Position numbers and translations under genes: made by a program. Below the pieces are notes generated by a model. That model did no database searches, was not told the DNA's origin, and was given only the letters and a program-made list of their open reading frames with translations. This document shows, one piece after another, positions 3,019 to 59,691 of a stretch of DNA of 64,000 nucleotides; positions within the stretch are counted from its first letter, which is position 1; each line of letters opens with the position of its first letter. Source of the DNA: a virus; IMG/VR virus record IMGVR_UViG_3300028422_000919, positions 124,001 through 188,000 of that record; one strand, written 5' to 3'.

Positions 3019-3891
3019 CTAATCAGGGGCAGTAAGGCCGGGGAGAACCCGGAAGTTTTGGGGCCCTACACGGGACTTGGTCACGGAGAAGGGCAATCCT
3101 TCCCCGTGAGACTCGAACACCTTGGCTATGGTTTGGGTGACCCTTTGCGGAACCTCTACGGCAGTCTCAGGAACCTCGAATGTCCAGAGGATTCGGGTGT
3201 TCATCGACTCCGCCAGGAGTTGTGGCTGGCGGTTCAGCCCAGGAACCTGAATATCCACCACTACCAGATCTGAAAAGTTTGCCTGGGAGATGAATTCCAG
3301 GCTCTCCTCCCGGTGCTGGAAGACCTGGCTAGAAGGGAACTCAAATCCCCAACGGCTCCGGAAGGTTTCAAGGGCCTGGCTCCGGTGTGGGACATGTAGG
3401 ATAACCCTGGCTCCGCCCAATGCGAAATCCCGGGCCATACGGAAAGCCAGGAGTGTCTTGCCGGATCTCCGCTTACCAGCGATCAGGGCGGCCTGCCCCC
3501 TCCCCCAGTCGAGCTTAGACAAGTCCGTAGTCATGTCCAAGGGCATGGTCCCAGGGTGGTAGCAGATGCCCTCTCCTGAGAGAGGCCCCTCCGTTGTAAG
3601 AGGGGTTGGGAGTTGTGCTAGCCCCGCAAAGACCCGGTACGCTTCCCAAAGCCAGTCCCGAAGTTCGGGGATGCTGGGGCACTCCAAGTGCAAGTCGATG
3701 CCAAAAACAACCCCTCTGGGACTACGGTGGTCCCCCTCCAGCAGATCCACCTCCCACTCCCCCCGTTTCTTCAGGGTCAGGGTGTATTTGCGGTTCAAAG
3801 TCTTGTAGTAGGTTCTCTCAGCGGGATCCTCGTGCCAGGCTCCCTCCGGGAAGATCTCATCTACCCAGAATCGAAGTGTCTTCAGTCCCAT
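3019..3891 (-). CDS. P-loop NTPase, 290 aa
   Basis: A Walker A motif (AGKRRSGKTLL, about residues 138-148) and a Walker B strand (DLVVVDIQV) identify a P-loop NTPase, with an N-terminal domain of about 130 residues that is not recognised. The single-domain RecA-like layout resembles small phage ATPases and nucleotide kinases; the substrate is unknown. The ATG at 3891 overlaps the TGA of the upstream gene. It is the last gene of an operon with the AAA+ ATPase and DUF4419 protein. It ends in TAG, and a TAA follows one codon later in the same frame, which matters because the phage carries a CUA-anticodon tRNA. Confidence 0.75.
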   Translation of the reverse strand: MGLKTLRFWVDEIFPEGAWHEDPAERTYYKTLNRKYTLTLKKRGEWEVDLLEGDHRSPRGVVFGIDLHLECPSIPELRDWLWEAYRVFAGLAQLPTPLTTEGPLSGEGICYHPGTMPLDMTTDLSKLDWGRGQAALIAGKRRSGKTLLAFRMARDFALGGARVILHVPHRSQALETFRSRWGFEFPSSQVFQHREESLEFISQANFSDLVVVDIQVPGLNRQPQLLAESMNTRILWTFEVPETAVEVPQRVTQTIAKVFESHGEGLPFSVTKSRVGPQNFRVLPGLTAPD

Positions 3892-9715: not shown

Positions 9716-10588
9716 CTATCGACGGAAGGCGGCGAACACAGCGACCGTGGAAAAGATGAGGAAGTCGTACAGGAAATGAACCACCACGGCAGAAATCAAA
9801 CCGTATGTTACCACCATCCAGAAGAAGAACATCCCCAGGAACCAGGAGTTGATCCTGCCGAACAACCCTTGATACTTGTGGCCGTCCTGGTAGGTGGCAT
9901 TGCTCATTAGGATACCGGCACCAACAGTCCAGGAATACGGGTGGAATAGGTACCCCTCCAGGAATCCTAACGTCATCCAGTTCGCCAGAGGCCCGGCGAT
10001 GGCTTCGTACAGGAACTGGTAGTCCAGGCCGAACACGAGGCACACCCCAGCAAACAGGCCGAGGGCGAGGCCAGCGATTTTGTGGGCCCTCTCTCCAACA
10101 AGTAGCAAGATGACGGCGATGCCTACGAAGAACCACATCAAGCCGATCCAGATGTAGAGGAGTACGAGAGACCCGGCAATTCCCAGAAGCCAACGGCACC
10201 AACGGTAGTACACCTCTTCGGTGACCCCTGCCCGCAGGGACACCAGGAATCCTTCTTGCAAGATCGCCCCGGCAGAAAGGCGACCACCCAACCTTTTGGC
10301 TAGGAGCCGTTCCAGGGATGTCTGCCGCCGGCTGAGGAGCCGGGACACCACGTTGGTCCCGATGCCCCAGGCGAACAGCCCCAGGGCAGCCAGAAGCCAG
10401 TCCACCAACTCGCCACGGGCGACCCAGAACATGGGGTCATACAGGTCGAAGGGGATCACGTCGGGCCACAGGGCCTCAATAATGAATACGAGGCCACAGA
10501 CCACTACGATCCGAAAGATCCAGTCGGCCCATGTACGGTTTTCCTTGTTCAGGCGTTGGAAGAGTCGCTTCACGTGGATTCGATTCAT
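9716..10588 (-). CDS. CPBP-family intramembrane protease-like protein
   Basis: A hydrophobic protein of 290 residues with about six to eight predicted membrane helices. It carries the signature of the CPBP (CAAX protease and bacteriocin-processing) family: paired glutamates in AGVTEEVYYRWC, a later histidine in YQDGHKYQG, and a final histidine in AVVVHFLYDF. These are the metal-binding residues of Rce1-type glutamyl proteases. In bacteria such proteins mature peptides, give immunity to bacteriocins or act in abortive infection; which applies to a phage copy is open. ATG 10588 is preceded by AGGAGGTGA. The gene ends in TAG. Confidence 0.8.
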   Translation of the reverse strand: MNRIHVKRLFQRLNKENRTWADWIFRIVVVCGLVFIIEALWPDVIPFDLYDPMFWVARGELVDWLLAALGLFAWGIGTNVVSRLLSRRQTSLERLLAKRLGGRLSAGAILQEGFLVSLRAGVTEEVYYRWCRWLLGIAGSLVLLYIWIGLMWFFVGIAVILLLVGERAHKIAGLALGLFAGVCLVFGLDYQFLYEAIAGPLANWMTLGFLEGYLFHPYSWTVGAGILMSNATYQDGHKYQGLFGRINSWFLGMFFFWMVVTYGLISAVVVHFLYDFLIFSTVAVFAAFRR

Positions 10589-25853: not shown

Positions 25854-27683
25854 TCAGGTGAGCCAGTCGAACTCGACCACGTAGCGGATTCGCTGGTAGT
25901 CGGGGGAGAAGATGATGTGCTCATCGTTCTCTAGCCCGTGCCCGTTATCTCCACCGACCCCGAAGACCGAGTCGGACTGGACCTGGGCCCCGCCACACTG
26001 ACAGGTCGTGGCCCCACCCCGGTTACCGTAGGAGCGGTAGGTGCCCTGCATGTTGTTCGGGCGGTGGCACTTGACACAGCTCTGGGGAGGGCTGCTCCAG
26101 GAGCCCGTCGAAGGCGCCCGGTAGGCATGCCCCATGATCATGTCCGTGACGAACATGAAACATCCCCGGTTCTGGACCCCGCCCCCACCCCCGCCGCTGT
26201 AGTAGCCTCGCCCCGTGTAGCCGTAGCTCTTCCGCCAGTCGGTGGCGAAGTAGATACCGTGTCCGAAATTGGCCCCGGTGATCTGGGCTCCCGGCAAGCT
26301 CTGAGGGAGCCGGAAATTAGTCCCCATGATGGGGGCGATGTTGACCGGGCGGGTGCCGTGGATGCTCAGGATGACGTTCGCCTGGGCGTACTCATCGGAG
26401 AGACCCGCCAGGTCGGTCCGGCGAGGTTGGAGATTGCCCCGGAGGGAGAACTTACCCTGGACACGGGCACCAACCCTTTGAACTTCCGCCAGGAAGCGGG
26501 CGTCTCGATCGGGACGTTCCACAGCAAACAGAGAACGGACCTTGGGAGACTTGGATCCCATGTAACCGTGCCGGTTGTTGCTCATGTGGACGAAAGCATC
26601 CCAGAGCCACTTCCCCTCGGTCCCGTTCGGATCGATCCAGCGGAGCTGAGCGTTCAGCAGGGAATCCGGATCGATGGACTGGACCGGAGTTGTCGTCGTG
26701 AAGTCCTCGGTCGTCAGAGCGGTCTCGAAGGCGTCGAGGTCCGCCTGGAGGGACAGGAGGTTGCCTGAGTTCAGGATGGCCTGCTCGTCGGTCCATCCCG
26801 TCCGGGGGATAGGACGGGGAACCAGACTGTTGACCGTGGTCGAGATGGTCCGCAGAGCGGAGTCCTTGACCTGGGCGGCCACCAGGGCATCGTTGTCCCG
26901 GAAGTTGGTGCCCACGGCGGCCAGTCGCTGAAGGGCCGCCGGGATGAGCTGGTCTCGAACCTTCGAGATGGCCCGCATGGTCGGAGTCACACCGCTGGCC
27001 TGGGACAGGGAGCGGGTGTACGTCTGGGTGCCGCCGACGAGGTCCCTGGCGAGTTGGACGACCTCGGGCTGCCACGACTTCAGAGACTTGACCACAGCGG
27101 GGGCGGCCGTCTTGACCGGCGTGGGAGCAGGCATGGCGACCCCGGACCCGTCTTTGACGGTCAGCACGTCGGGGAGCCCCTTCTCACGAGTTGCTAGGTC
27201 CTGGATGAGATAGCCGTCTTTGCCAGCCTTGGCACACCACAGGTCGATGCCCCCGATGCTCTTGCACTCCAGACGGGCCAGGTTCTTGTCTCGGACCTGC
27301 CCAGCGAACCAGGAACGGGCCTGGTCGAGGGTGGCCCCCACGGTGAACTGGAAATCCTGGTAGGCCCCCGTCCAGGAGCCGTGCTCCCAGCTCTTCCCCG
27401 GACGGGAACGACCCCACTCGAAGTAGGCGTGGTACTGGCCCGTCTTCTTGTCCCGCACCACCCCGGCGTGGTAGCCCTTGGCGTTGTTCGCTTCCCCGAA
27501 CTGGTTGACGCACACCATGTCCACGAGCCCGATGTCGGGGTTGGGCATGGAACCGTTCAGGTACCCATTTTCGTCGATGGCGGGCTTTCCGACGTACTCG
27601 AAGTCGTCAGGAGAGCAGCCTGCGGGGAGCTGGCGCTTGCCCAACTTGTCGTTGGTCCCAGGTTTCTTGACGGCGATGGTCAT
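25854..27683 (-). CDS. WGR-domain PARP-like ADP-ribosyltransferase
   Basis: The protein should transfer ADP-ribose from NAD+ to a protein or nucleic-acid target. The N-terminal 130 residues contain a WGR-like domain (HAYFEWGRSRPG), the middle resembles the helical PARP regulatory domain, and the last 180 residues are a PARP catalytic domain. The His, Tyr and Glu of the H-Y-E signature are visible: SIHGTRPVN (near 443), GHGIYFATDWRKSYGYT (near 477) and NDEHIIFSPDY (near 587). Between them a zinc-ribbon-like insert (CVKCHRP ... CQCGG) replaces the usual loop and is unusual. At 609 residues it is complete. It has its own promoter. An ADP-ribosylglycohydrolase is encoded at 44722-45627. Confidence 0.9.
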   Translation of the reverse strand: MTIAVKKPGTNDKLGKRQLPAGCSPDDFEYVGKPAIDENGYLNGSMPNPDIGLVDMVCVNQFGEANNAKGYHAGVVRDKKTGQYHAYFEWGRSRPGKSWEHGSWTGAYQDFQFTVGATLDQARSWFAGQVRDKNLARLECKSIGGIDLWCAKAGKDGYLIQDLATREKGLPDVLTVKDGSGVAMPAPTPVKTAAPAVVKSLKSWQPEVVQLARDLVGGTQTYTRSLSQASGVTPTMRAISKVRDQLIPAALQRLAAVGTNFRDNDALVAAQVKDSALRTISTTVNSLVPRPIPRTGWTDEQAILNSGNLLSLQADLDAFETALTTEDFTTTTPVQSIDPDSLLNAQLRWIDPNGTEGKWLWDAFVHMSNNRHGYMGSKSPKVRSLFAVERPDRDARFLAEVQRVGARVQGKFSLRGNLQPRRTDLAGLSDEYAQANVILSIHGTRPVNIAPIMGTNFRLPQSLPGAQITGANFGHGIYFATDWRKSYGYTGRGYYSGGGGGGVQNRGCFMFVTDMIMGHAYRAPSTGSWSSPPQSCVKCHRPNNMQGTYRSYGNRGGATTCQCGGAQVQSDSVFGVGGDNGHGLENDEHIIFSPDYQRIRYVVEFDWLT

Positions 27684-27716
27684 ATAGTAGGTCCTCACAT
27701 TCAGTCTCAGAAAGGG

Positions 27717-27742
27717 CTACCCGATCTCAGCTCAGGGTTACC
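27717..27742 (-). promoter_or_regulatory. Phage promoter motif, GGTAAC-N15-GGTAG
   Basis: GGTAAC at 27737-27742 and GGTAG at 27717-27721 on the minus strand, upstream of the PARP-like gene. The first block covers the stop codon of the gene above. Confidence 0.65.
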
Positions 27743-28040
27743 TGATCTTCTCGGGGGACTTCTGGGCCTTGAATAGCTCGAACCGGAGACGGGCACGGGC
27801 GTTCAGAATGGCGATGTTGATGAGGGAGAGGCCGATTCGGGCGTCCGGGTTGTCCATCTCCGCCACCAGCTTTCGGAGGGTGGCCTCGGCCAGGACCGCA
27901 CATTCCTCAGCGGCCTGGAGATCCCCCGCATGGATATAGCGGTCGATCTCCGGGATTCCTACACGGTCTTCCAGGCGACTCTGGGCTTCGGTAGCCTGGG
28001 CAACCAGGATGGCGTCCCGCTCAATGTCCCCACGGGTCAT
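27738..28040 (-). CDS. Helical hypothetical protein, 100 aa
   Basis: Not recognised. Almost all helix (EECAVLAEATLRKLVAEMDN, NIAILNARARLRFELFKAQ). ATG 28040 follows GGAGGACACC in the shared GAACAACGGAGG leader. It has its own promoter motif. Confidence 0.7.
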   Translation of the reverse strand: MTRGDIERDAILVAQATEAQSRLEDRVGIPEIDRYIHAGDLQAAEECAVLAEATLRKLVAEMDNPDARIGLSLINIAILNARARLRFELFKAQKSPEKIR

Positions 28041-28063
28041 GGTGTCCTCCGTTGTTCGTCCCC

Positions 28064-28089
28064 CTACTCACCAGGTGAGGAAGGTTATC
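28064..28089 (-). promoter_or_regulatory. Phage promoter motif variant, GATAAC-N15-AGTAG
   Basis: GATAAC at 28084-28089 and AGTAG at 28064-28068 on the minus strand, upstream of the gene at 28040. Confidence 0.6.
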
Positions 28090-28345
28090 CGTTCTGAGAC
28101 CACCCTTGGGTTTCCTCGGAGGCTTCCGCCAGGGCTTCCTCAGCTTTGTCCACGAATTCCGCCCAGGTCTCCTGAGCGTACCCCTCGTAGCCGTCGCCAT
28201 TGTCGTCGAAGTCCTTCGTGAACTCGTCATGGCCCCAGGAGAAGTCCTCGGGGCTGTCACCCTGCTCGGGCACGTACCCATTGAGGTCTTGGAACGGGGT
28301 GAGACGGGAGCCGAACGATCCGAAGTTGCTGATATGCACGCTCAT
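28085..28345 (-). CDS. Acidic hypothetical protein, 86 aa
   Basis: Not recognised. It is Asp/Glu-rich (FDDNGDGYEGYAQETW) with a helical end (EEALAEASEETQGW). ATG 28345 follows GCGAACAACGGAGGACCCC, the shared leader. Small acidic proteins of this type can be DNA mimics, but no direct evidence is seen. Confidence 0.65.
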   Translation of the reverse strand: MSVHISNFGSFGSRLTPFQDLNGYVPEQGDSPEDFSWGHDEFTKDFDDNGDGYEGYAQETWAEFVDKAEEALAEASEETQGWSQNG

Positions 28346-28369
28346 GGGGTCCTCCGTTGTTCGCCTCAC

Positions 28370-28395
28370 CTACTTGCCAGGGAACCCGTGTTACC
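28370..28395 (-). promoter_or_regulatory. Phage promoter motif, GGTAAC-N15-AGTAG
   Basis: GGTAAC at 28390-28395 and AGTAG at 28370-28374 on the minus strand, upstream of the gene at 28345. Confidence 0.65.
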
Positions 28396-28416
28396 TGCTT
28401 GTACCTTACGGAAGAT

Positions 28417-28450
28417 TGAAGGGGGGTGGGGATTCCCCCACCCCCCTTCA
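28417..28450 (-). terminator. Strong hairpin, probable terminator
   Basis: A perfect 15-base-pair stem with a four-base loop (TGAAGGGGGGTGGGG against CCCCACCCCCCTTCA), ten bases after the stop of the gene at 28460. No T run follows, as with the hairpin at 24241. Confidence 0.6.
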
Positions 28451-28459
28451 CCTTTCGCC

Positions 28460-28972
28460 TTAGTTCTCGTACTTGGCCTTCAGGGAGGCGAGTTGTTCTC
28501 GCTCCCTCTTCTCCGCAGCTTCCTTCTGGCGGGCATCCTCTTCGGCCTGACGGGCTTCCTCGGCCATCTTCTCGGCTTCCGCCTTGGCCTTGATGTCCGC
28601 CAAAACCTCCGACTGGTCGAGCCAGAGGTAGGAGGTGGGAAACCGGAAGTAGTGCCGGTCGTCCCCGCAACACCCCCGGCCGCAGGCGGGGGCCTCGGCC
28701 TGGATTTCGACCTCGTCGCTGTTGATCTCGATGGTCTTGATATGGGGGCGATATTGGAACAGGTCCTGCCACTCGGGATCGGCGGCGTACCGCTTCCAGA
28801 AATAGCTCTGGGCCAGGTTCTCCATCACGTCCTTGCTCTCCACCAGCAGGTGGATCAGGCTTTCGGATAGGTTGCTTTCGACGTACTTCTGGAGGGTTTG
28901 GTACACCTTGCCGTTGGCGTCCTCCCAGTAGGTGTCACCGTGATCATTCGTCTTCTTGGTCAGCCCTAGCAT
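28460..28972 (-). CDS. Hypothetical protein with Cys cluster and coiled coil, 170 aa
   Basis: Not recognised. A cysteine cluster (PACGRGCCGDDRHYF) sits after a helical N-terminal half, and the C-terminal 60 residues are a charged coiled coil (EKMAEEARQAEEDARQKEAA). ATG 28972 overlaps the TGA of the Pth2-like gene. It is the last gene of a three-gene unit closed by a strong hairpin. Confidence 0.7.
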   Translation of the reverse strand: MLGLTKKTNDHGDTYWEDANGKVYQTLQKYVESNLSESLIHLLVESKDVMENLAQSYFWKRYAADPEWQDLFQYRPHIKTIEINSDEVEIQAEAPACGRGCCGDDRHYFRFPTSYLWLDQSEVLADIKAKAEAEKMAEEARQAEEDARQKEAAEKREREQLASLKAKYEN

Positions 28973-29277
28973 CACGCAGCCCTCCGATAGCAGTTGGAAG
29001 TCTTCCGCCCCAGGAGGGGCAGTTCCAGCCGGCCAGCGTCCGTGGCGAACGCCGTGGCCTCGTTGTTCAGGTCCGGCTCCCGCCAGAGGATAGTCCTGCC
29101 TTCCTTGGGGAGGCAGGCCATGAGATCGTCCTCGGAAGGAACAGCATACACGATAACCGTTCCTCGATGAGGGCCGTGAGCGTGGCACCACTCATCCATA
29201 GCGTGGATTGCCATCGCAGCACGTCTCCCTTCGGAGAGGTCAGTGCGGGTCACGAAGTAGAGACGGTTGGGAGCCAT
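28972..29277 (-). CDS. Peptidyl-tRNA hydrolase 2-like protein, 101 aa
   Basis: The layout follows the Pth2 fold: NRLYFVTRTDLSEGRRAAM with HAMDEW at the N-terminus, GTVIVYAVPSEDDLMACL in the middle, and ATDAGRLELPLLGRKTS near the end, matching the DAGRTQ region of Pth2. Pth2 releases tRNA from stalled peptides. The basic residues known to bind tRNA are only partly kept and the protein is short, so the activity is uncertain. It starts beside the TAG stop of the upstream gene and is coupled to the gene downstream. Confidence 0.6.
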   Translation of the reverse strand: MAPNRLYFVTRTDLSEGRRAAMAIHAMDEWCHAHGPHRGTVIVYAVPSEDDLMACLPKEGRTILWREPDLNNEATAFATDAGRLELPLLGRKTSNCYRRAA

Positions 29278-29712
29278 CTACGCTGCCTCCCCCTGCTTGG
29301 CCTGCTTCTCGGTCCACTCCTTGCGGAGACGGTCCTGGAGGTCAGCGGCAGTCCCGGACTGGACGGCCATGCGCCATTCCGTCATGTACTCCAAAGCGGT
29401 CCCCATAAGAGCCTTGCGGTCCACTCCGGAACCCTCGAAGTGCATGCCCACGAGTGCCACCACCCGAGACGAGGCTGGGAACGACCAATTGGACCAGCGG
29501 GTGTTCGGGCTCTCGGAAAGAGCCGGGTGACGACCCCGGAGGATGTGGTAGGCCAGCAGGTGTTCCCTGGCATCGGAACCCACCTCATTGGCCTCAGCCT
29601 TGAGGTGGTAGCGCTCCATGTGGGAAGTCTGCCGGGCTTCGTTGCGCTTCTGGCGGCCCTCGGCGGCGAGGGTCTTGATGGCGGTCTGGATCTTGGTCAG
29701 GTACGGCTTCAT
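29278..29712 (-). CDS. Hypothetical helical protein, 144 aa
   Basis: Not recognised. A basic, helical protein (EGRQKRNEARQTSHMERYH). It is first in its unit, 170 bases below the promoter at 29882-29907; the 150-base leader shows no open gene. It ends in TAG. Confidence 0.65.
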   Translation of the reverse strand: MKPYLTKIQTAIKTLAAEGRQKRNEARQTSHMERYHLKAEANEVGSDAREHLLAYHILRGRHPALSESPNTRWSNWSFPASSRVVALVGMHFEGSGVDRKALMGTALEYMTEWRMAVQSGTAADLQDRLRKEWTEKQAKQGEAA

Positions 29713-29881
29713 AGGGATTCTCCTTGTGGTTCGTTGTACCGTTTCTCGTCTCAGGAAAAGAGAAGCGGACGAACCGGAGGACCCCGGGGCCGTTGAACCT
29801 ACTCGTGGCGGAAAGCGTAACTCATGTTTAGAACCTATCCACGTTGGTGGGACGTGTCAAGCCCCCCCTGTCACACTAAAG

Positions 29882-29907
29882 CTACCCTATTCTCGGAAAT
29901 CGTTACC
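29882..29907 (-). promoter_or_regulatory. Phage promoter motif, GGTAAC-N15-GGTAG
   Basis: GGTAAC at 29902-29907 and GGTAG at 29882-29886 on the minus strand. The first block meets the TAG of the gene above. The leader to the next start is long (about 170 bases). Confidence 0.6.
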
Positions 29908-30728
29908 TACTCAGAATCGTTTTCCGCCACCACGAGGCCTCCTGCATAGCCCCGCTGGGCGTCCCCGTAAACCCGGTCGAGCCGGCCTTCATAGATGTCA
30001 GGACTCCCAGACAGGAACGCCTCAATGAACTCGGAAGTCGTGTGCCCGGCGATCCGAATCCAGACTTCTTCTCCCATCTGAATCGGGGCCATGACGGCCA
30101 AGCGCTGCTGGAGGGCGGCCTCCCGCAGCAACAGCCACTCCTGCTCGTCGATGCTGTGGCCAACCTTGCGGTGGAGGCGGGTGCCATAGAGTTCCACCCA
30201 TTCCGCCCGCATAAACCGAGACTGCCATTTGAAGATGCCCCGCATAACCTCTTTCAGATCCTTGTTGGAGGACCTGGCGATCTGCTCAGCGGAAAACACC
30301 ATCACGTCGTAGGAGGCCACCCCAGGACACTCGTCGCTGTAGGCAGCATGGGGGCAGTGGTCCGTGGCAGCGATCAGACGCAGACCCTCAGGGGGCTTGT
30401 CGCCCCCGCCGATGGCATCCCAAACCTGACCGAGGCTCGAAGCCTCCCAGAACTCTGCCGGGGGTCGTCCGTATCCGGGATCCCCCGGATAGTGGTGGTC
30501 CACGAAGTGGAGCGTTTCCTTGCCCGCCAGGGGGGAACACTCCACCCAGAGCTGCCCTTTCTCCACCTCGGGCCAGTCGGCTTGGTACATGTTGGAATAG
30601 GTGACGGGCTTGCCGTCCTTCTTCGCCCAGAGCACGTTCAGCCTCTTGCTAACGGCGAGTCGGGCGATGGCTTCCATCTCGGGGTCGATCACCCCCAAAA
30701 CGAGGGTGGCAGGCTTGTCAGTAAGCAT
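29907..30728 (-). CDS. DHH-phosphoesterase-like protein, 273 aa
   Basis: The middle holds LHFVDHHYPGDPGYG, the DHH motif of the RecJ/nanoRNase phosphoesterases, followed by LIAATDHCPHAAYSDE, which may supply the next metal-binding Asp/His. The usual N-terminal DxD motif is not clear, so the assignment is tentative. The C-terminal half is helical and unassigned. If correct it would degrade short nucleotides or signalling dinucleotides. It lies downstream of the PspA-like gene, with an 82-base gap, and could share its promoter. It ends in TAG. Confidence 0.45.
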   Translation of the reverse strand: MLTDKPATLVLGVIDPEMEAIARLAVSKRLNVLWAKKDGKPVTYSNMYQADWPEVEKGQLWVECSPLAGKETLHFVDHHYPGDPGYGRPPAEFWEASSLGQVWDAIGGGDKPPEGLRLIAATDHCPHAAYSDECPGVASYDVMVFSAEQIARSSNKDLKEVMRGIFKWQSRFMRAEWVELYGTRLHRKVGHSIDEQEWLLLREAALQQRLAVMAPIQMGEEVWIRIAGHTTSEFIEAFLSGSPDIYEGRLDRVYGDAQRGYAGGLVVAENDSE

Positions 30729-34385: not shown

Positions 34386-34402
34386 TACTTGACGGAACGC
34401 AG

Positions 34403-34477
34403 TGCGCCCGGGGGGACTCGAACCCCCGCATCACCAAGTTTTAGAGACTCGGGCTCTAACCTCTGAGCTACGGGCGC
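34403..34477 (-). tRNA. tRNA with anticodon CUA (amber-reading, suppressor type)
   Basis: A complete cloverleaf: acceptor GCGCCCG/CGGGCGC, D arm GCTC/GAGC, T arm GGGGG-TTCGAGT-CCCCC, discriminator A, no encoded CCA. The anticodon stem CGAGT/ACTTG (one G-U pair, extended by C26-G44) encloses a seven-base loop CTCTAAA, which puts C-T-A at positions 34-36 after T33, so it reads UAG. The variable region is seven bases, longer than usual. It has its own promoter (34516-34542) and is isolated from other tRNAs. The charged amino acid cannot be read from the sequence. About a quarter of genes in the window end in TAG. Confidence 0.82.
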
Positions 34478-34481
34478 ATAC

Positions 34482-34498
34482 TGGGGCCTCGTGGCCCC
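34482..34498 (-). other. Hairpin just upstream of the tRNA
   Basis: GGGGCC and GGCCCC form a six-base-pair stem with a four-base loop, five bases before the 5' end of the mature tRNA, probably in the precursor leader. Confidence 0.45.
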
Positions 34499-34515
34499 GT
34501 CGTTGTTCGGGGGGA

Positions 34516-34656: not shown

Positions 34657-35085
34657 TCAGGTGGGCTCTAGGCGGGGGAGTAGCACCACTCCCCCCCAGT
34701 ACCTCTTCATGGTGCGGAGGGCCGCCTCAGACAGAGGTTTCGCCACGTAGCTGTTCGCTCCCCCCTGATACCCTCGAAGGATGTCCGTATCGGACTTGCT
34801 GGCCGTCATGACGACCACGGGGATATGGCTCAACAGAGGGTCCTTGCGGATCTGGGCAAGAGCCTCATGTCCCCCCATCCTTGGCATCTTCAAATCCAGT
34901 AGGATCATGTCGGGCAGGGTTTTAGAGGGGTCCCTCAGCCTCTCCAGCAATTCCACTCCATCCTTGACCCTCTCCAGCTTGTTCGGACTCTGGCACTCGT
35001 CGAAGCTGTCAGCTATGAGCATCCAGTCTTCATCGTCATCTTCGGCAAAAAGAAGCAGCGGGTTGCGTTTTGAAGCTGTGAGCAT
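34657..35085 (-). CDS. Response regulator, single receiver domain
   Basis: A free-standing REC domain of 142 residues of the Rcp1 type. The acidic pocket (FAEDDDEDWML), phosphoacceptor Asp (ILLDLKMPRMGG), Thr (VVMTASKSD) and Lys (YVAKPLSE) are present, so it should be phosphorylated. There is no output domain. The ATG at 35085 is chosen over a longer start at 35118 that overlaps the kinase gene. It lies four bases downstream of a histidine kinase gene and is its likely partner. Confidence 0.92.
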   Translation of the reverse strand: MLTASKRNPLLLFAEDDDEDWMLIADSFDECQSPNKLERVKDGVELLERLRDPSKTLPDMILLDLKMPRMGGHEALAQIRKDPLLSHIPVVVMTASKSDTDILRGYQGGANSYVAKPLSEAALRTMKRYWGGVVLLPRLEPT

Positions 35086-35089
35086 GGGA

Positions 35090-36253
35090 TCAATCCACCT
35101 TTCTCTTTGGGAGGCCAACGTGGAACGTGGCCCCTTCTCCGGGCATAGCCTCGCAGTCGATCCAGCCTTGGTGACGATCTAGAATCTTCTTCACCAGTGC
35201 CAGACCGATGCCCGTGCCCGGATAGTCAAACCGGGTGTGAAGCCTCTCGAAGAGCTGGAACACCTTGTCTTTGAATGCCATGTCGAACCCGATCCCGTTG
35301 TCCGACACTGAAATCACCCAGTCCTCGTCGGTCTCCTGGGCGGTGAACTGGATCAAGGGCACCCTGTCGGGGTGCCGGAACTTGATGCTGTTGCTGATCA
35401 GGTTCTGAAGCACGGTCCGCATCTGGTAGCGGTCTGCCCAGACGGTAGGTAGGTCCTGTGCCAAAACCCGGGCATTGGCCTGTTCGATGGGGATGGCCAG
35501 GTCTTCCAGAATGCTGCGGAGGATCTTGTTGAGGTCCACTGCCTCAAAGGGGTCTTCCAGCCTCCCCACCCGGCTGTAGGACAGGAGGTCATCCATCAAC
35601 GACTGCATGCGCTCCGTGGCGTTCAACATCACGTCGATATATGACTGCCCCTTGTCGTCCAGCACTTCGGCGTACTTCTCCTTGAGCCTTTGGCCGAAGG
35701 CCCTCACTTTGAGCAGGGGTTCTCGGAGGTCATGGCTGGCAGCGTAAGCGAACTGACGTAGCTCATCGTTGGACAGTTGAAGCTCTTCCGTCCGGGCCCT
35801 CACTAGAGCTTCCAAATCCTGGACATTCCCTCGATGCTCCGTCACATCCCGTACCAGGACTAGGCACTCGTCCTCATGACTGCGGGCGAACCGAGCCTCG
35901 AACACGGAATTAGGATGATTGGGGACCTTGAACTCCCAGGTGATTACCTCTCCAGTGTCCATCGCTTGGAGGGCTTTATGCAGGGTGGCGTTTGCGAATT
36001 CCGGCCTGCCTACATCGAGAACCCGCCGGCCGATAACGTTCTGGTGATCCGCCAAGGGGGAGGCATTCAGCCCCGGCGCCATGTCGGCATAGAACCCTTC
36101 TCGGGTGATGATGCAGATCAGGTCGGGAGAGGCAATGCGGAGGGCATCCAGACGACCGGGATCATTGACTCGGCCGTAAGAGGGATCCTGCTGGCACCGA
36201 TTCAGAAACGGACAGCTCTTGCCCTGCAGGCACCAGTCGGGAGAACTGGACAT
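35090..36253 (-). CDS. Soluble PAS histidine kinase
   Basis: A full transmitter in 387 residues: a PAS-like sensor (about residues 40-145) after a Cys-rich N-terminus (WCLQGKSCPFLNRC), the H-box AASHDLREPLLKVRAFG, the N-box LQNLISNSIKFRH, the G1 box VSDNGIGFDM, the F box VFQLFERLHTRF and G2 box PGTGIGLALVKK. Nothing essential is missing, so it should autophosphorylate. It has no membrane helix, so the signal is probably cytoplasmic; the cysteines could bind metal or sense redox state. It is close to phytochrome-type kinases. It is encoded between two receiver proteins, one with a membrane helix. Confidence 0.93.
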   Translation of the reverse strand: MSSSPDWCLQGKSCPFLNRCQQDPSYGRVNDPGRLDALRIASPDLICIITREGFYADMAPGLNASPLADHQNVIGRRVLDVGRPEFANATLHKALQAMDTGEVITWEFKVPNHPNSVFEARFARSHEDECLVLVRDVTEHRGNVQDLEALVRARTEELQLSNDELRQFAYAASHDLREPLLKVRAFGQRLKEKYAEVLDDKGQSYIDVMLNATERMQSLMDDLLSYSRVGRLEDPFEAVDLNKILRSILEDLAIPIEQANARVLAQDLPTVWADRYQMRTVLQNLISNSIKFRHPDRVPLIQFTAQETDEDWVISVSDNGIGFDMAFKDKVFQLFERLHTRFDYPGTGIGLALVKKILDRHQGWIDCEAMPGEGATFHVGLPKRKVD

Positions 36254-48210: not shown

Positions 48211-49421
48211 ACGTCGTCGCCGGTCGCTTTGCCGTAGTAGGCGGGCAAACTGGGCATAGCCTCGTAGAGGCATGACCGTAGGTAGGGGTACCCGAGATCG
48301 TCCCAAATGCGGAAATACGGGATAACATTCCCGAACTTCTCCCTTTCGTTGAGGATCTGGATACGTCTGATCTTCTCATCCTCTGGTAGGTGTTGCTCGT
48401 CGAAGCGAGCCTGGGTGTTGGGGTCCACACCTCTTTTTGCCAAGAGTTTGCTTTGGTCTGAGTTTCGCACTACGATCACGTTGCCGTTGACCAAAGAGGC
48501 CATGTCATTCTCGACCAGGAGAGCCCACTCCAGGATGATGACCCCCGCCTTGTCCGCCAACCACTCCCGCATTTTCCGGAGGACGTGAGGCTTGGTCCTC
48601 GTGTGGATCTGCTTGAGCATGTCCGGGGTGATCTCCCCGCTAGAGATCTTGGCCTTGAGCACAGCCGTGTTGACATTGTCTCCAAGGGGCATCAACACAT
48701 CCTTGCCCACGAGGTCAGCGATATCGTCCCGGACCTTCTGAGCGCCTGGCGTGTCCTCCTCGTATAGGTCACGGATGCACTTATCGAGGTTCAGGTGGTG
48801 GGCGGGGATGCCGTCGAGCCTGAGCCTCTTCTCCAGCTCCTTCGCCACCCAGGTCTTGCCTGTCGCCACCCGACCGCAGATACCAACCATGAATTGGCGA
48901 TGCAGTTTGACCTCCAAGCGATGCTTCACTCGGAGTGGCACTAGATGACCGATATCGACGTGCCGCTGGGCCATAGCCTTGACCAAACTGGAGCTGACGT
49001 GAGCCCAGTCAGGATCCGGGTGGACGAACACCACCATGTCCTTGATGCCGGGCATGATCCGGTCGTGGTGGCCCATCTGAGACTCCTCGTAAGCACGGTC
49101 ACGAGCGTCCCTCACCCCCCGAAAAATCACGTCGATCCCCTCCCGGAGGACGACGTCCACCAGAAGGTCGTTGGACCCGATGACCCGCCATCTCCCCCGA
49201 CAATCACCCGGAAGGAAAGTCGAGAGAGCATGGGTGACATGAAGCATCCTCTCGTTCATCTCTAGGAGGTACTTGCCCGCCTTATCGTCGTTGTTTCCGA
49301 CCCAGACCACCAGCTCGTCGATGACGGGTGCCCCCGGATCGTACTTCCCGAGGCACTTCCGAATGATGTGCAGGTGCCCCCGGGTCACGGGGTCTCCCGA
49401 CAAAGCGAACAATCCACGCAC
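48207..49421 (-). CDS. Fused phosphopantetheine adenylyltransferase and dephospho-CoA kinase
   Basis: Residues about 1-195 are a PPAT (CoaD): nucleotide-binding SGDPVTRGHLHIIRKCLG, IDVIFRGVRDARDRAYEESQ and VSSSLVKAMAQRHVDIGHLV. Residues about 200-404 are a CoaE-type kinase: Walker A GICGRVATGKTWVAKELE, then VIILEWALLVENDM and LLAKRGVDPNTQ. The pair catalyses the last two steps of CoA synthesis; a fused form is known in animals (CoA synthase) but is not the usual bacterial form. The start is the GTG at 49421, placed by AAAGGAGG six bases upstream; the ATG at 49442 lies six bases from the promoter and is not used. It opens the kinase-vWA operon. Confidence 0.88.
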   Translation of the reverse strand: MRGLFALSGDPVTRGHLHIIRKCLGKYDPGAPVIDELVVWVGNNDDKAGKYLLEMNERMLHVTHALSTFLPGDCRGRWRVIGSNDLLVDVVLREGIDVIFRGVRDARDRAYEESQMGHHDRIMPGIKDMVVFVHPDPDWAHVSSSLVKAMAQRHVDIGHLVPLRVKHRLEVKLHRQFMVGICGRVATGKTWVAKELEKRLRLDGIPAHHLNLDKCIRDLYEEDTPGAQKVRDDIADLVGKDVLMPLGDNVNTAVLKAKISSGEITPDMLKQIHTRTKPHVLRKMREWLADKAGVIILEWALLVENDMASLVNGNVIVVRNSDQSKLLAKRGVDPNTQARFDEQHLPEDEKIRRIQILNEREKFGNVIPYFRIWDDLGYPYLRSCLYEAMPSLPAYYGKATGDDV

Positions 49422-59228: not shown

Positions 59229-59621
59229 ATGCTGAGCAGAACCGAAATCGAAGCCCTCATGACCGAGAAGTCCATCCTGGCCGAGAAGGCCCAGCTCTCC
59301 AATGTGGATCTCGACCGCTTGGGCGAAATCCATCTGGTGCTGGACTCCCTCCCCGAGCTGACGATGGACATGCTTGGTCTTCTGAACCAAGACCTCTGCG
59401 ACGTGGAGGTTGATGTGGAGGAGGACGACGACGAGTTCACCGAAGCGGAGCCGAAGATCTCGGTCCAGGTGACAGACGGCGTGCTCACCTCGGTCTGGAT
59501 GGGCTACGCCGATGCCCCCCCGTGGGTCCAGGACATGGTGGACCGCCAATTCGAGGCGGAGTATGAGGTCACCGCCGAGGCCCGCTCCGAGCGCCAGCAG
59601 CTCTACGGGGGGCACTACTAG
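59229..59621 (+). CDS. Acidic hypothetical protein, 130 aa
   Basis: Not recognised. Acidic, with helices at both ends (EKSILAEKAQLSNVDLDRLG; APPWVQDMVDRQFEAEYEV) and a DVEEDDDEFTEAE middle. The stop is TAG followed at once by TAA in frame, a double stop of interest beside the CUA-anticodon tRNA. Confidence 0.7.
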   Translation: MLSRTEIEALMTEKSILAEKAQLSNVDLDRLGEIHLVLDSLPELTMDMLGLLNQDLCDVEVDVEEDDDEFTEAEPKISVQVTDGVLTSVWMGYADAPPWVQDMVDRQFEAEYEVTAEARSERQQLYGGHY

Positions 59622-59691
59622 TAACGTCTGCCAAATCGAGGGGGGGGGGTCACCCCCAGCAATGGCGGGCCACCCTCAAAAAGGTGCTGAG

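What the first reader, a model, noticed from the sequence alone, without database searches (positions are those of the whole stretch)
34403..34477. tRNA reading the amber codon UAG beside many TAG-ending genes
The cloverleaf puts C-T-A in the anticodon after T33. At least 16 genes in this window end in TAG, including ones ending at 3019, 9716, 14989, 29907, 31697, 51568, 53563, 55212 and 59621, so wholesale recoding is unlikely; instead the tRNA could cause regulated readthrough or serve only part of the cycle. Two TAG stops have a second in-frame stop close behind (TAG-TAA at 59619-59624; TAG-ACC-TAA at 3021-3013), as if guarded against readthrough. Amber-suppressor tRNAs with recoding are known in some gut phages, but this phage is GC-rich and its TAG genes look intact.
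Basis: partly seen in the sequence, partly recalled or inferred. Interest (0 to 1): 0.85.

Follow-up and report, generated by a model that had tools for sequence, protein, structure and literature searches.

The report
Phage amber tRNA paired with amber-gated enzyme
A giant standard-code phage carries a tRNA that reads the stop codon UAG, and comparison with many other viruses suggests that such tRNAs switch on one nearby gene, a peptidyl-tRNA hydrolase whose coding sequence is interrupted by exactly that stop codon.

Summary
The tRNA is real: 34403-34477, minus strand, 60.8 bits, loop CUCUAAA, anticodon CUA. The window lies in a 402-kb phage record using the standard code. TAG ends 65 of 358 genes, and no conserved gene contains an in-frame TAG, so the genome is not recoded. 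Its stops are not convincingly guarded.

The tRNA is not unique. In 52 of 120 such loci a peptidyl-tRNA hydrolase 2 (Pth2)-like gene lies on the same strand, mostly within 1 kb; control loci with an Arg-UCU tRNA have 0 of 120. Many of these genes carry an in-frame TAG soon after the start codon, e.g. M-K-UAG-Pth2. Over all data, 41 sequence clusters are interrupted by TAG and none by TAA or TGA. I conclude that these tRNAs express an amber-gated Pth2.

The window's phage has the same pair. Its only Pth2 gene (28972-29277, predicted Pth2 fold) follows directly and in frame after the TAG (29278-29280) of an N-terminal partner; elsewhere the two are one protein. An ATG and ribosome-binding site after this TAG leave ordinary initiation possible. 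Charging, readthrough and activity are untested.

The parts
34403..34477 (-). tRNA gene, anticodon CUA (reads UAG), loop CUCUAAA, discriminator A73, 3' CCA not encoded, 7-nt variable loop
   Evidence: ARAGORN, Rfam RF00005 60.8 bits, fold; nearest tRNA bodies Arg(UCU)/Lys(CUU) and phage amber tRNAs
29278..29712 (-). N-terminal partner gene (144 aa) ending in TAG; its start aligns with the N-domain of one-piece N-domain-Pth2 proteins of other amber-tRNA phages
   Evidence: gene; profile match of both halves across the TAG 3.7e-7 (Z=1000), N half alone 0.0017; sequence
29278..29280 (-). amber codon TAG, in frame between the N-terminal partner and the Pth2-like domain; proposed target of the tRNA
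   Evidence: sequence; L136 has the same junction with no start codon in the next 28 codons
28972..29277 (-). Pth2-like gene (101 aa), only such gene found in the record; AF2 model pLDDT 87.8, best PDB matches all Pth2
   Evidence: family HMM E 2.4e-7; model; Foldseek; family profile matches Pth2 2zv3 at 3.7e-9; Pfam alone gives no hit
29286..29293 (-). Shine-Dalgarno-like GGGGGAGG 8 nt before the ATG that follows the TAG; allows ordinary initiation of Pth2
   Evidence: sequence
34482..34499 (-). 7-bp G+C-rich hairpin just 5' of the tRNA (leader)
   Evidence: seen as a terminator-like stem on the + strand

Best explanation
The gene encodes a genuine amber-decoding tRNA of a standard-code phage. 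It belongs to a widespread virus-borne pairing: a CUA tRNA together with a Pth2-like peptidyl-tRNA hydrolase gene whose reading frame is interrupted by UAG, usually at codon 3-5, or at the junction with an N-terminal domain. Shown by sequence: the tRNA, the linkage, the same-strand rule, the exclusive use of TAG, and selection on the interrupted frame. Inferred: the tRNA is charged, competes with release factor 1 at that UAG, and thereby gates synthesis of the hydrolase, so that the enzyme appears only when the phage's own tRNA has accumulated. The enzyme would then recycle peptidyl- or N-acylated tRNAs during infection. In this window the amber codon at 29278-29280 would be read to fuse the 144-residue partner to Pth2. 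Other TAG stops would suffer only low readthrough, which is tolerated.
For: Amber tRNAs with this D-arm and loop: at least 120 viral contigs versus 6 of 84,980 prokaryote genomes; 124 of the 126 loci confirmed CUA by ARAGORN. Pth2-like gene in 52/120 amber-tRNA loci, all same strand, versus 0/120 Arg(UCU) control loci. Protein-first sample: 31 distinct Pth2 genes interrupted by TAG, 0 by TAA/TGA, 24 with a CUA tRNA in the fetched stretch; genes with a normal start have one in 2 of 10, p 0.002. All data: 41 TAG-interrupted clusters of 73, none by other stops; 93/93 CUA tRNAs on the strand of the Pth2 gene. Close relatives of interrupted genes differ mainly at third positions, e.g. 27 third-position differences versus 7 and 2, so they are not pseudogenes. 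In genes at large, an ATG within 5 codons before a 5' in-frame stop occurs with all three stops about equally. Family is Pth2: Pfam PF01981 up to 42 bits, PDB profile 3.7e-9, fold of the window's protein. In the window, TAG precedes the Pth2 domain at the conserved distance, and one-piece homologues align across it.
Against: In this phage an ATG with a good ribosome-binding site directly follows the TAG, so Pth2 can be made without readthrough; several other phages have the two genes split with TGA or TAA. tRNA and Pth2 are about 5 kb apart here, further than usual. The N-domain match in the window is weak (0.0017 alone). About a third of clusters (23/73) have a CUA tRNA beside a Pth2 with a normal start, so gating is not universal, and 68 of 120 amber-tRNA loci show no Pth2 in the fetched stretch. 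The two samples overlap and contain related contigs. No expression, charging or protein data.
Confidence: 0.62

Rival explanations
1. In this phage the amber tRNA and the Pth2 gene are linked by ancestry only. Pth2 is translated from its own ATG by ordinary coupling after the TAG stop of the upstream gene, and the tRNA gives non-specific low-level readthrough or has another target.
For: TAG-ATG junction with GGGGGAGG 8 nt upstream; split-gene forms ending in TGA or TAA in other phages; tRNA 5 kb away; TAG used freely as stop (65/358).
Against: L136 has the same junction with no start codon before the domain; the amber sits at the conserved distance from the domain; the tRNA has been kept intact.
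Confidence: 0.4
2. Whole-genome or partial recoding of UAG to an amino acid, as in code-15 gut phages.
For: Presence of a CUA tRNA.
Against: No TAG inside about 98,000 aligned residues except at one true gene end; TAG stops swap with TGA/TAA in orthologues; gaps after in-frame TAG stops have negative coding scores; no release factor gene.
Confidence: 0.02
3. A neutral or decaying relic: a captured Arg or Lys tRNA whose anticodon drifted to CUA, without function.
For: Body resembles Arg(UCU)/Lys(CUU) tRNAs; no CCA encoded; 7-nt variable loop.
Against: Intact stems at 60.8 bits; loop CUCUAAA in 127 of 130 distinct amber tRNAs (the search pattern required it for one per locus, but most second copies show it too); strong linkage to TAG-interrupted Pth2 in many viruses.
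Confidence: 0.08
4. Decoy or anti-defence tRNA: its value is to resist or absorb tRNA-cutting defences, with decoding of UAG a side effect.
For: Phage tRNAs evade tRNA-targeting defences (PMC11555353, abstract); pairs of dissimilar amber tRNAs in about 20 contigs.
Against: Does not explain why only TAG, never TAA/TGA, interrupts the neighbouring Pth2 genes.
Confidence: 0.1

Closest known systems
Xanthomonas phage XacN1 tRNA-Sup pair (PMC5852040)
   Same: Jumbo phage of about 400 kb, standard code, CUA tRNAs with identical loop, one of them 61/76 positions identical to ours; also encodes a peptidyl-tRNA hydrolase
   Different: Authors found no readthrough target among 18 amber stops; two adjacent CUA tRNAs in a tRNA-rich region; its Pth-like hit lies in an open frame of 283 aa without internal stops, far from the tRNAs
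Suppressor tRNAs of UAG-recoded gut phages (code 15: crAss-like, Lak; PMC10879173, PMC9523058)
   Same: Phage-encoded CUA tRNA decoding UAG
   Different: There many genes contain TAG; here no recoding, and the inferred target is one gene
Pth2 (PTH2, PF01981) of archaea and eukaryotes
   Same: Fold and sequence profile
   Different: Short viral form; the lysine-containing GKGK motif of the known enzymes (own knowledge) appears replaced by PGYQ-like residues; gene interrupted by an amber codon; activity untested
Agrobacterium phage Atu_ph07 (PMC6102473)
   Same: Stop-decoding tRNA (opal, UCA) in a jumbo phage that also has two putative Pth genes
   Different: Opal rather than amber; linkage and gene starts not examined

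Membership tests
Functional tRNA with CUA anticodon | Complete cloverleaf, U33, CUA at 34-36 | tested here: met
Functional tRNA with CUA anticodon | Transcribed, matured, aminoacylated | not testable with these tools
   sequence only; a CCA-adding enzyme homologue is encoded at 320067-321203 of the record
UAG-recoded (code 15) phage | Conserved genes with in-frame TAG | tested here: not met
Amber tRNA + Pth2 pairing | CUA tRNA and Pth2-like gene on the same strand of one phage | tested here: met
   window 34403-34477 and 28972-29277, both minus
Amber tRNA + Pth2 pairing | In-frame TAG just upstream of the Pth2 domain | tested here: met
   TAG 29278-29280
Amber tRNA + Pth2 pairing | No alternative start between TAG and domain (readthrough obligatory) | tested here: not met
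   ATG at 29275-29277 with SD. Met in 41 clusters elsewhere
Pth2 | Pth2 fold / profile | tested here: met
   Foldseek, profile; Pfam on this member alone negative
Pth2 | Peptidyl-tRNA hydrolase activity, catalytic residues | not tested
   motif differences noted only by eye
Pyrrolysine system (ARAGORN label tRNA-Pyl) | PylS-type synthetase | tested here: not met
   no tRNA-synt_2d hit in the record; the label reflects the anticodon only

The most novel reading that the evidence does not exclude
Large standard-code phages widely carry a dedicated one-gene genetic-code switch: a suppressor tRNA whose purpose is to read an amber codon placed at the start of a peptidyl-tRNA hydrolase gene, making the enzyme (itself acting on tRNAs) conditional on the phage's own tRNA. 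The short leader ending in UAG may also act as a sensor of termination or peptidyl-tRNA drop-off.
Probability: 0.5. Interest if true: 0.92.

Novelty: new variant of a known kind. Interest (0 to 1): 0.84.

Why it matters
Amber tRNAs in phages that do not recode have been an unexplained oddity, for example in XacN1. A specific, conserved, amber-interrupted target beside the tRNA would explain a large share of them, reveal a new way for viruses to gate a gene by tRNA supply, and can be tested with a simple reporter. It also means gene callers truncate or miss these hydrolases in many virus genomes.

Tried and rejected
Recoding tests: the first tblastn with all six-frame ORFs gave spurious stops from non-coding frames and was redone with called genes. 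In-frame adjacency of genes after TAG stops looked enriched (9/33 versus 5/83, p 0.003), but the gaps have negative coding scores; of the two pairs that could be checked in relative G001, one has TGA and the other a different neighbour, so this was not taken as readthrough. A further in-frame pair with no gap (29278/28972) turned out to be the Pth2 junction. The first amber-tRNA pattern was off by one base and fetched mostly Arg(UCU) tRNAs. Terminase relatives: G001 is a fragment that does not cover the tRNA region, so its lack of tRNAs says nothing; LR745208 and Tunturi_5 have no CUA tRNA. TAG-stop avoidance: carriers overall slightly depleted (logit -0.40, 95% -0.66 to -0.15), but only at low GC; none at GC like this phage. 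No RF-1-domain or PylS-type gene. No HDV-like or other convincing Rfam element at the tRNA.

Full report
Check of the observation. The tRNA is present as described: ARAGORN calls 34402-34477 minus, anticodon CTA; the Rfam tRNA model gives 60.8 bits against a cut-off of 29; the fold is stable. The window is bases 124001-188000 of a 402,383-base virus record with about 30 tRNAs, all others on the plus strand and mostly in clusters at 9-14 and 46-49 kb; the CUA tRNA is alone and on the minus strand. Bases 36-38, AAA, fit the known MiaA recognition rule (own knowledge). Its body is closest to Arg(UCU) and Lys(CUU) tRNAs and to other phage amber tRNAs, including XacN1's, 61 of 76 positions. The amino acid is unknown; A73 with U35 would permit lysine (inference).

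Not recoded. With a home-made codon-usage gene caller, 358 genes end in TGA 227, TAA 66, TAG 65. Genes of two relatives aligned over about 98,000 residues show one TAG inside an alignment, and that is a true gene end. Of 18 TAG-ended genes with orthologues in G001, 10 end there with TGA or TAA, most at the same place. So TAG is an ordinary stop in most genes. The guard hypothesis fails.

Not alone. ARAGORN confirms CUA in 124 of the 126 loci, and local reading frames are long under the standard code in most. Around 20 contigs have two amber tRNAs, mostly adjacent and dissimilar.

The neighbour. Clustering proteins around these tRNAs gave one dominant family, in 39 of 120 loci, always on the tRNA's strand. 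Pfam names it PTH2, up to 42 bits, and a profile of 20 members matches solved archaeal and human Pth2. A family HMM finds it in 52/120 amber-tRNA loci and 0/120 loci chosen by an Arg(UCU) tRNA pattern of the same form. The control set contains more small contigs and prophages, so the contrast is partly one of phage type.

The amber codon in the gene. Many of these Pth2 frames have no start codon before the conserved domain. Instead there is an ATG, often with a ribosome-binding site, a few codons and then TAG: MS*IKSGDKLYIVTRAD, MCL*VKEGDKLYVITRAD, MKDT*SKLIVITRRD. A second sample found by protein similarity rather than by tRNA gave 31 distinct TAG-interrupted genes and none interrupted by TAA or TGA; 24 have a CUA tRNA within the fetched stretch, several of the rest being cut by contig ends; normal-start genes have one in 2 of 10. 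This sample overlaps the first and is one family, so counts are not independent events. Over both, 73 clusters at 85% identity hold 41 interrupted by TAG, 0 by other stops, and all 93 CUA tRNAs lie on the gene's strand. Substitutions between close interrupted copies fall mainly in third positions, so the genes are under selection. The GenBank records LR756500, LR756501 and LR756504, huge metagenomic phages, show the interrupted form too; LR756500 duplicates an IMG/VR entry.

The window. The record's only Pth2 hit is 28972-29277 minus. Pfam alone misses it, but the AlphaFold2 model (pLDDT 87.8) has Pth2 structures as its confident PDB matches. It begins directly after, and in frame with, the TAG of the 144-residue gene 29278-29712. 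One-piece proteins in other amber-tRNA phages (L154, L126, L149, L173, L183) have an N-domain joined to Pth2, and their profile matches both halves of ours across the TAG, weakly for each half. Contig L136 has the same junction without a start codon after the TAG, so readthrough would be needed there. In ours, ATG and GGGGGAGG permit ordinary initiation, so the local case is suggestive, not proven.

Mechanism. Best reading: the tRNA decodes the amber codon and gates Pth2. Why gate it is speculation: timing by tRNA accumulation, or sensing of termination, since short leader frames ending in a stop favour peptidyl-tRNA drop-off (own knowledge of lambda bar minigenes). Pth activity has also been described as reversing the action of a tRNA-acetylating toxin (PMC9241777, title and abstract), so an anti-toxin role is possible.

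Novelty. XacN1's authors looked for readthrough targets of CUA tRNAs and found none. Literature searches of the held library found no description of the tRNA-Pth2 pairing or of amber-interrupted Pth2. Subscription papers and preprints are not held, so priority is not established.

Noticed in passing
G000:C1 (window record) 10120-10260, 48650-48783, 48784-48920, about 48980-49120; also at 49140 and 49315: Several tRNA genes carry inserts of about 60-75 nt ending in conserved A(G)CCTACA(A/C)GC with paired GCTC/GAGC and GAC/GTC arms; not found in relatives LR745208 or Tunturi_5, and the one other viral-contig match is not in a tRNA.
   Followed up: partly
L034, L118 (XacN1), L120, L123, L142, L177, L209, L217, L234 and others: About 20 viral contigs carry two amber tRNAs, mostly adjacent and mutually dissimilar, with different discriminator bases.
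   Followed up: partly
L084:7177-7701 (LR745208): The relative has a Pth2-like gene with a normal start and, about 36 nt downstream, a weak tRNA-like match with anticodon UUA (ochre).
   Followed up: partly
viral loci L120-L239 versus L246-L365: AT-rich carriers of amber tRNAs use TAG as a stop much less often than controls (16/334 versus 60/414 genes at GC below 40%); no difference at high GC.
   Followed up: partly
window record, 9 gene pairs listed: TAG-ended genes are unusually often followed by the next gene in the same frame without a further stop (9/33 versus 5/83, p 0.003, post hoc); unexplained.
   Followed up: partly
window 34657-36253: Response regulator and PAS-histidine kinase genes directly upstream of the tRNA on its strand.
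   Followed up: no
window 25854-27683; record 27212-30723: PARP-domain protein in the window; NAD synthase, nicotinamidase-like and nicotinate phosphoribosyltransferase genes elsewhere in the record suggest NAD metabolism.
   Followed up: no
record 385053-389531: Ribonucleotide reductase of 1492 aa with a large inserted stretch resembling an intein/homing-endonuclease region.
   Followed up: no
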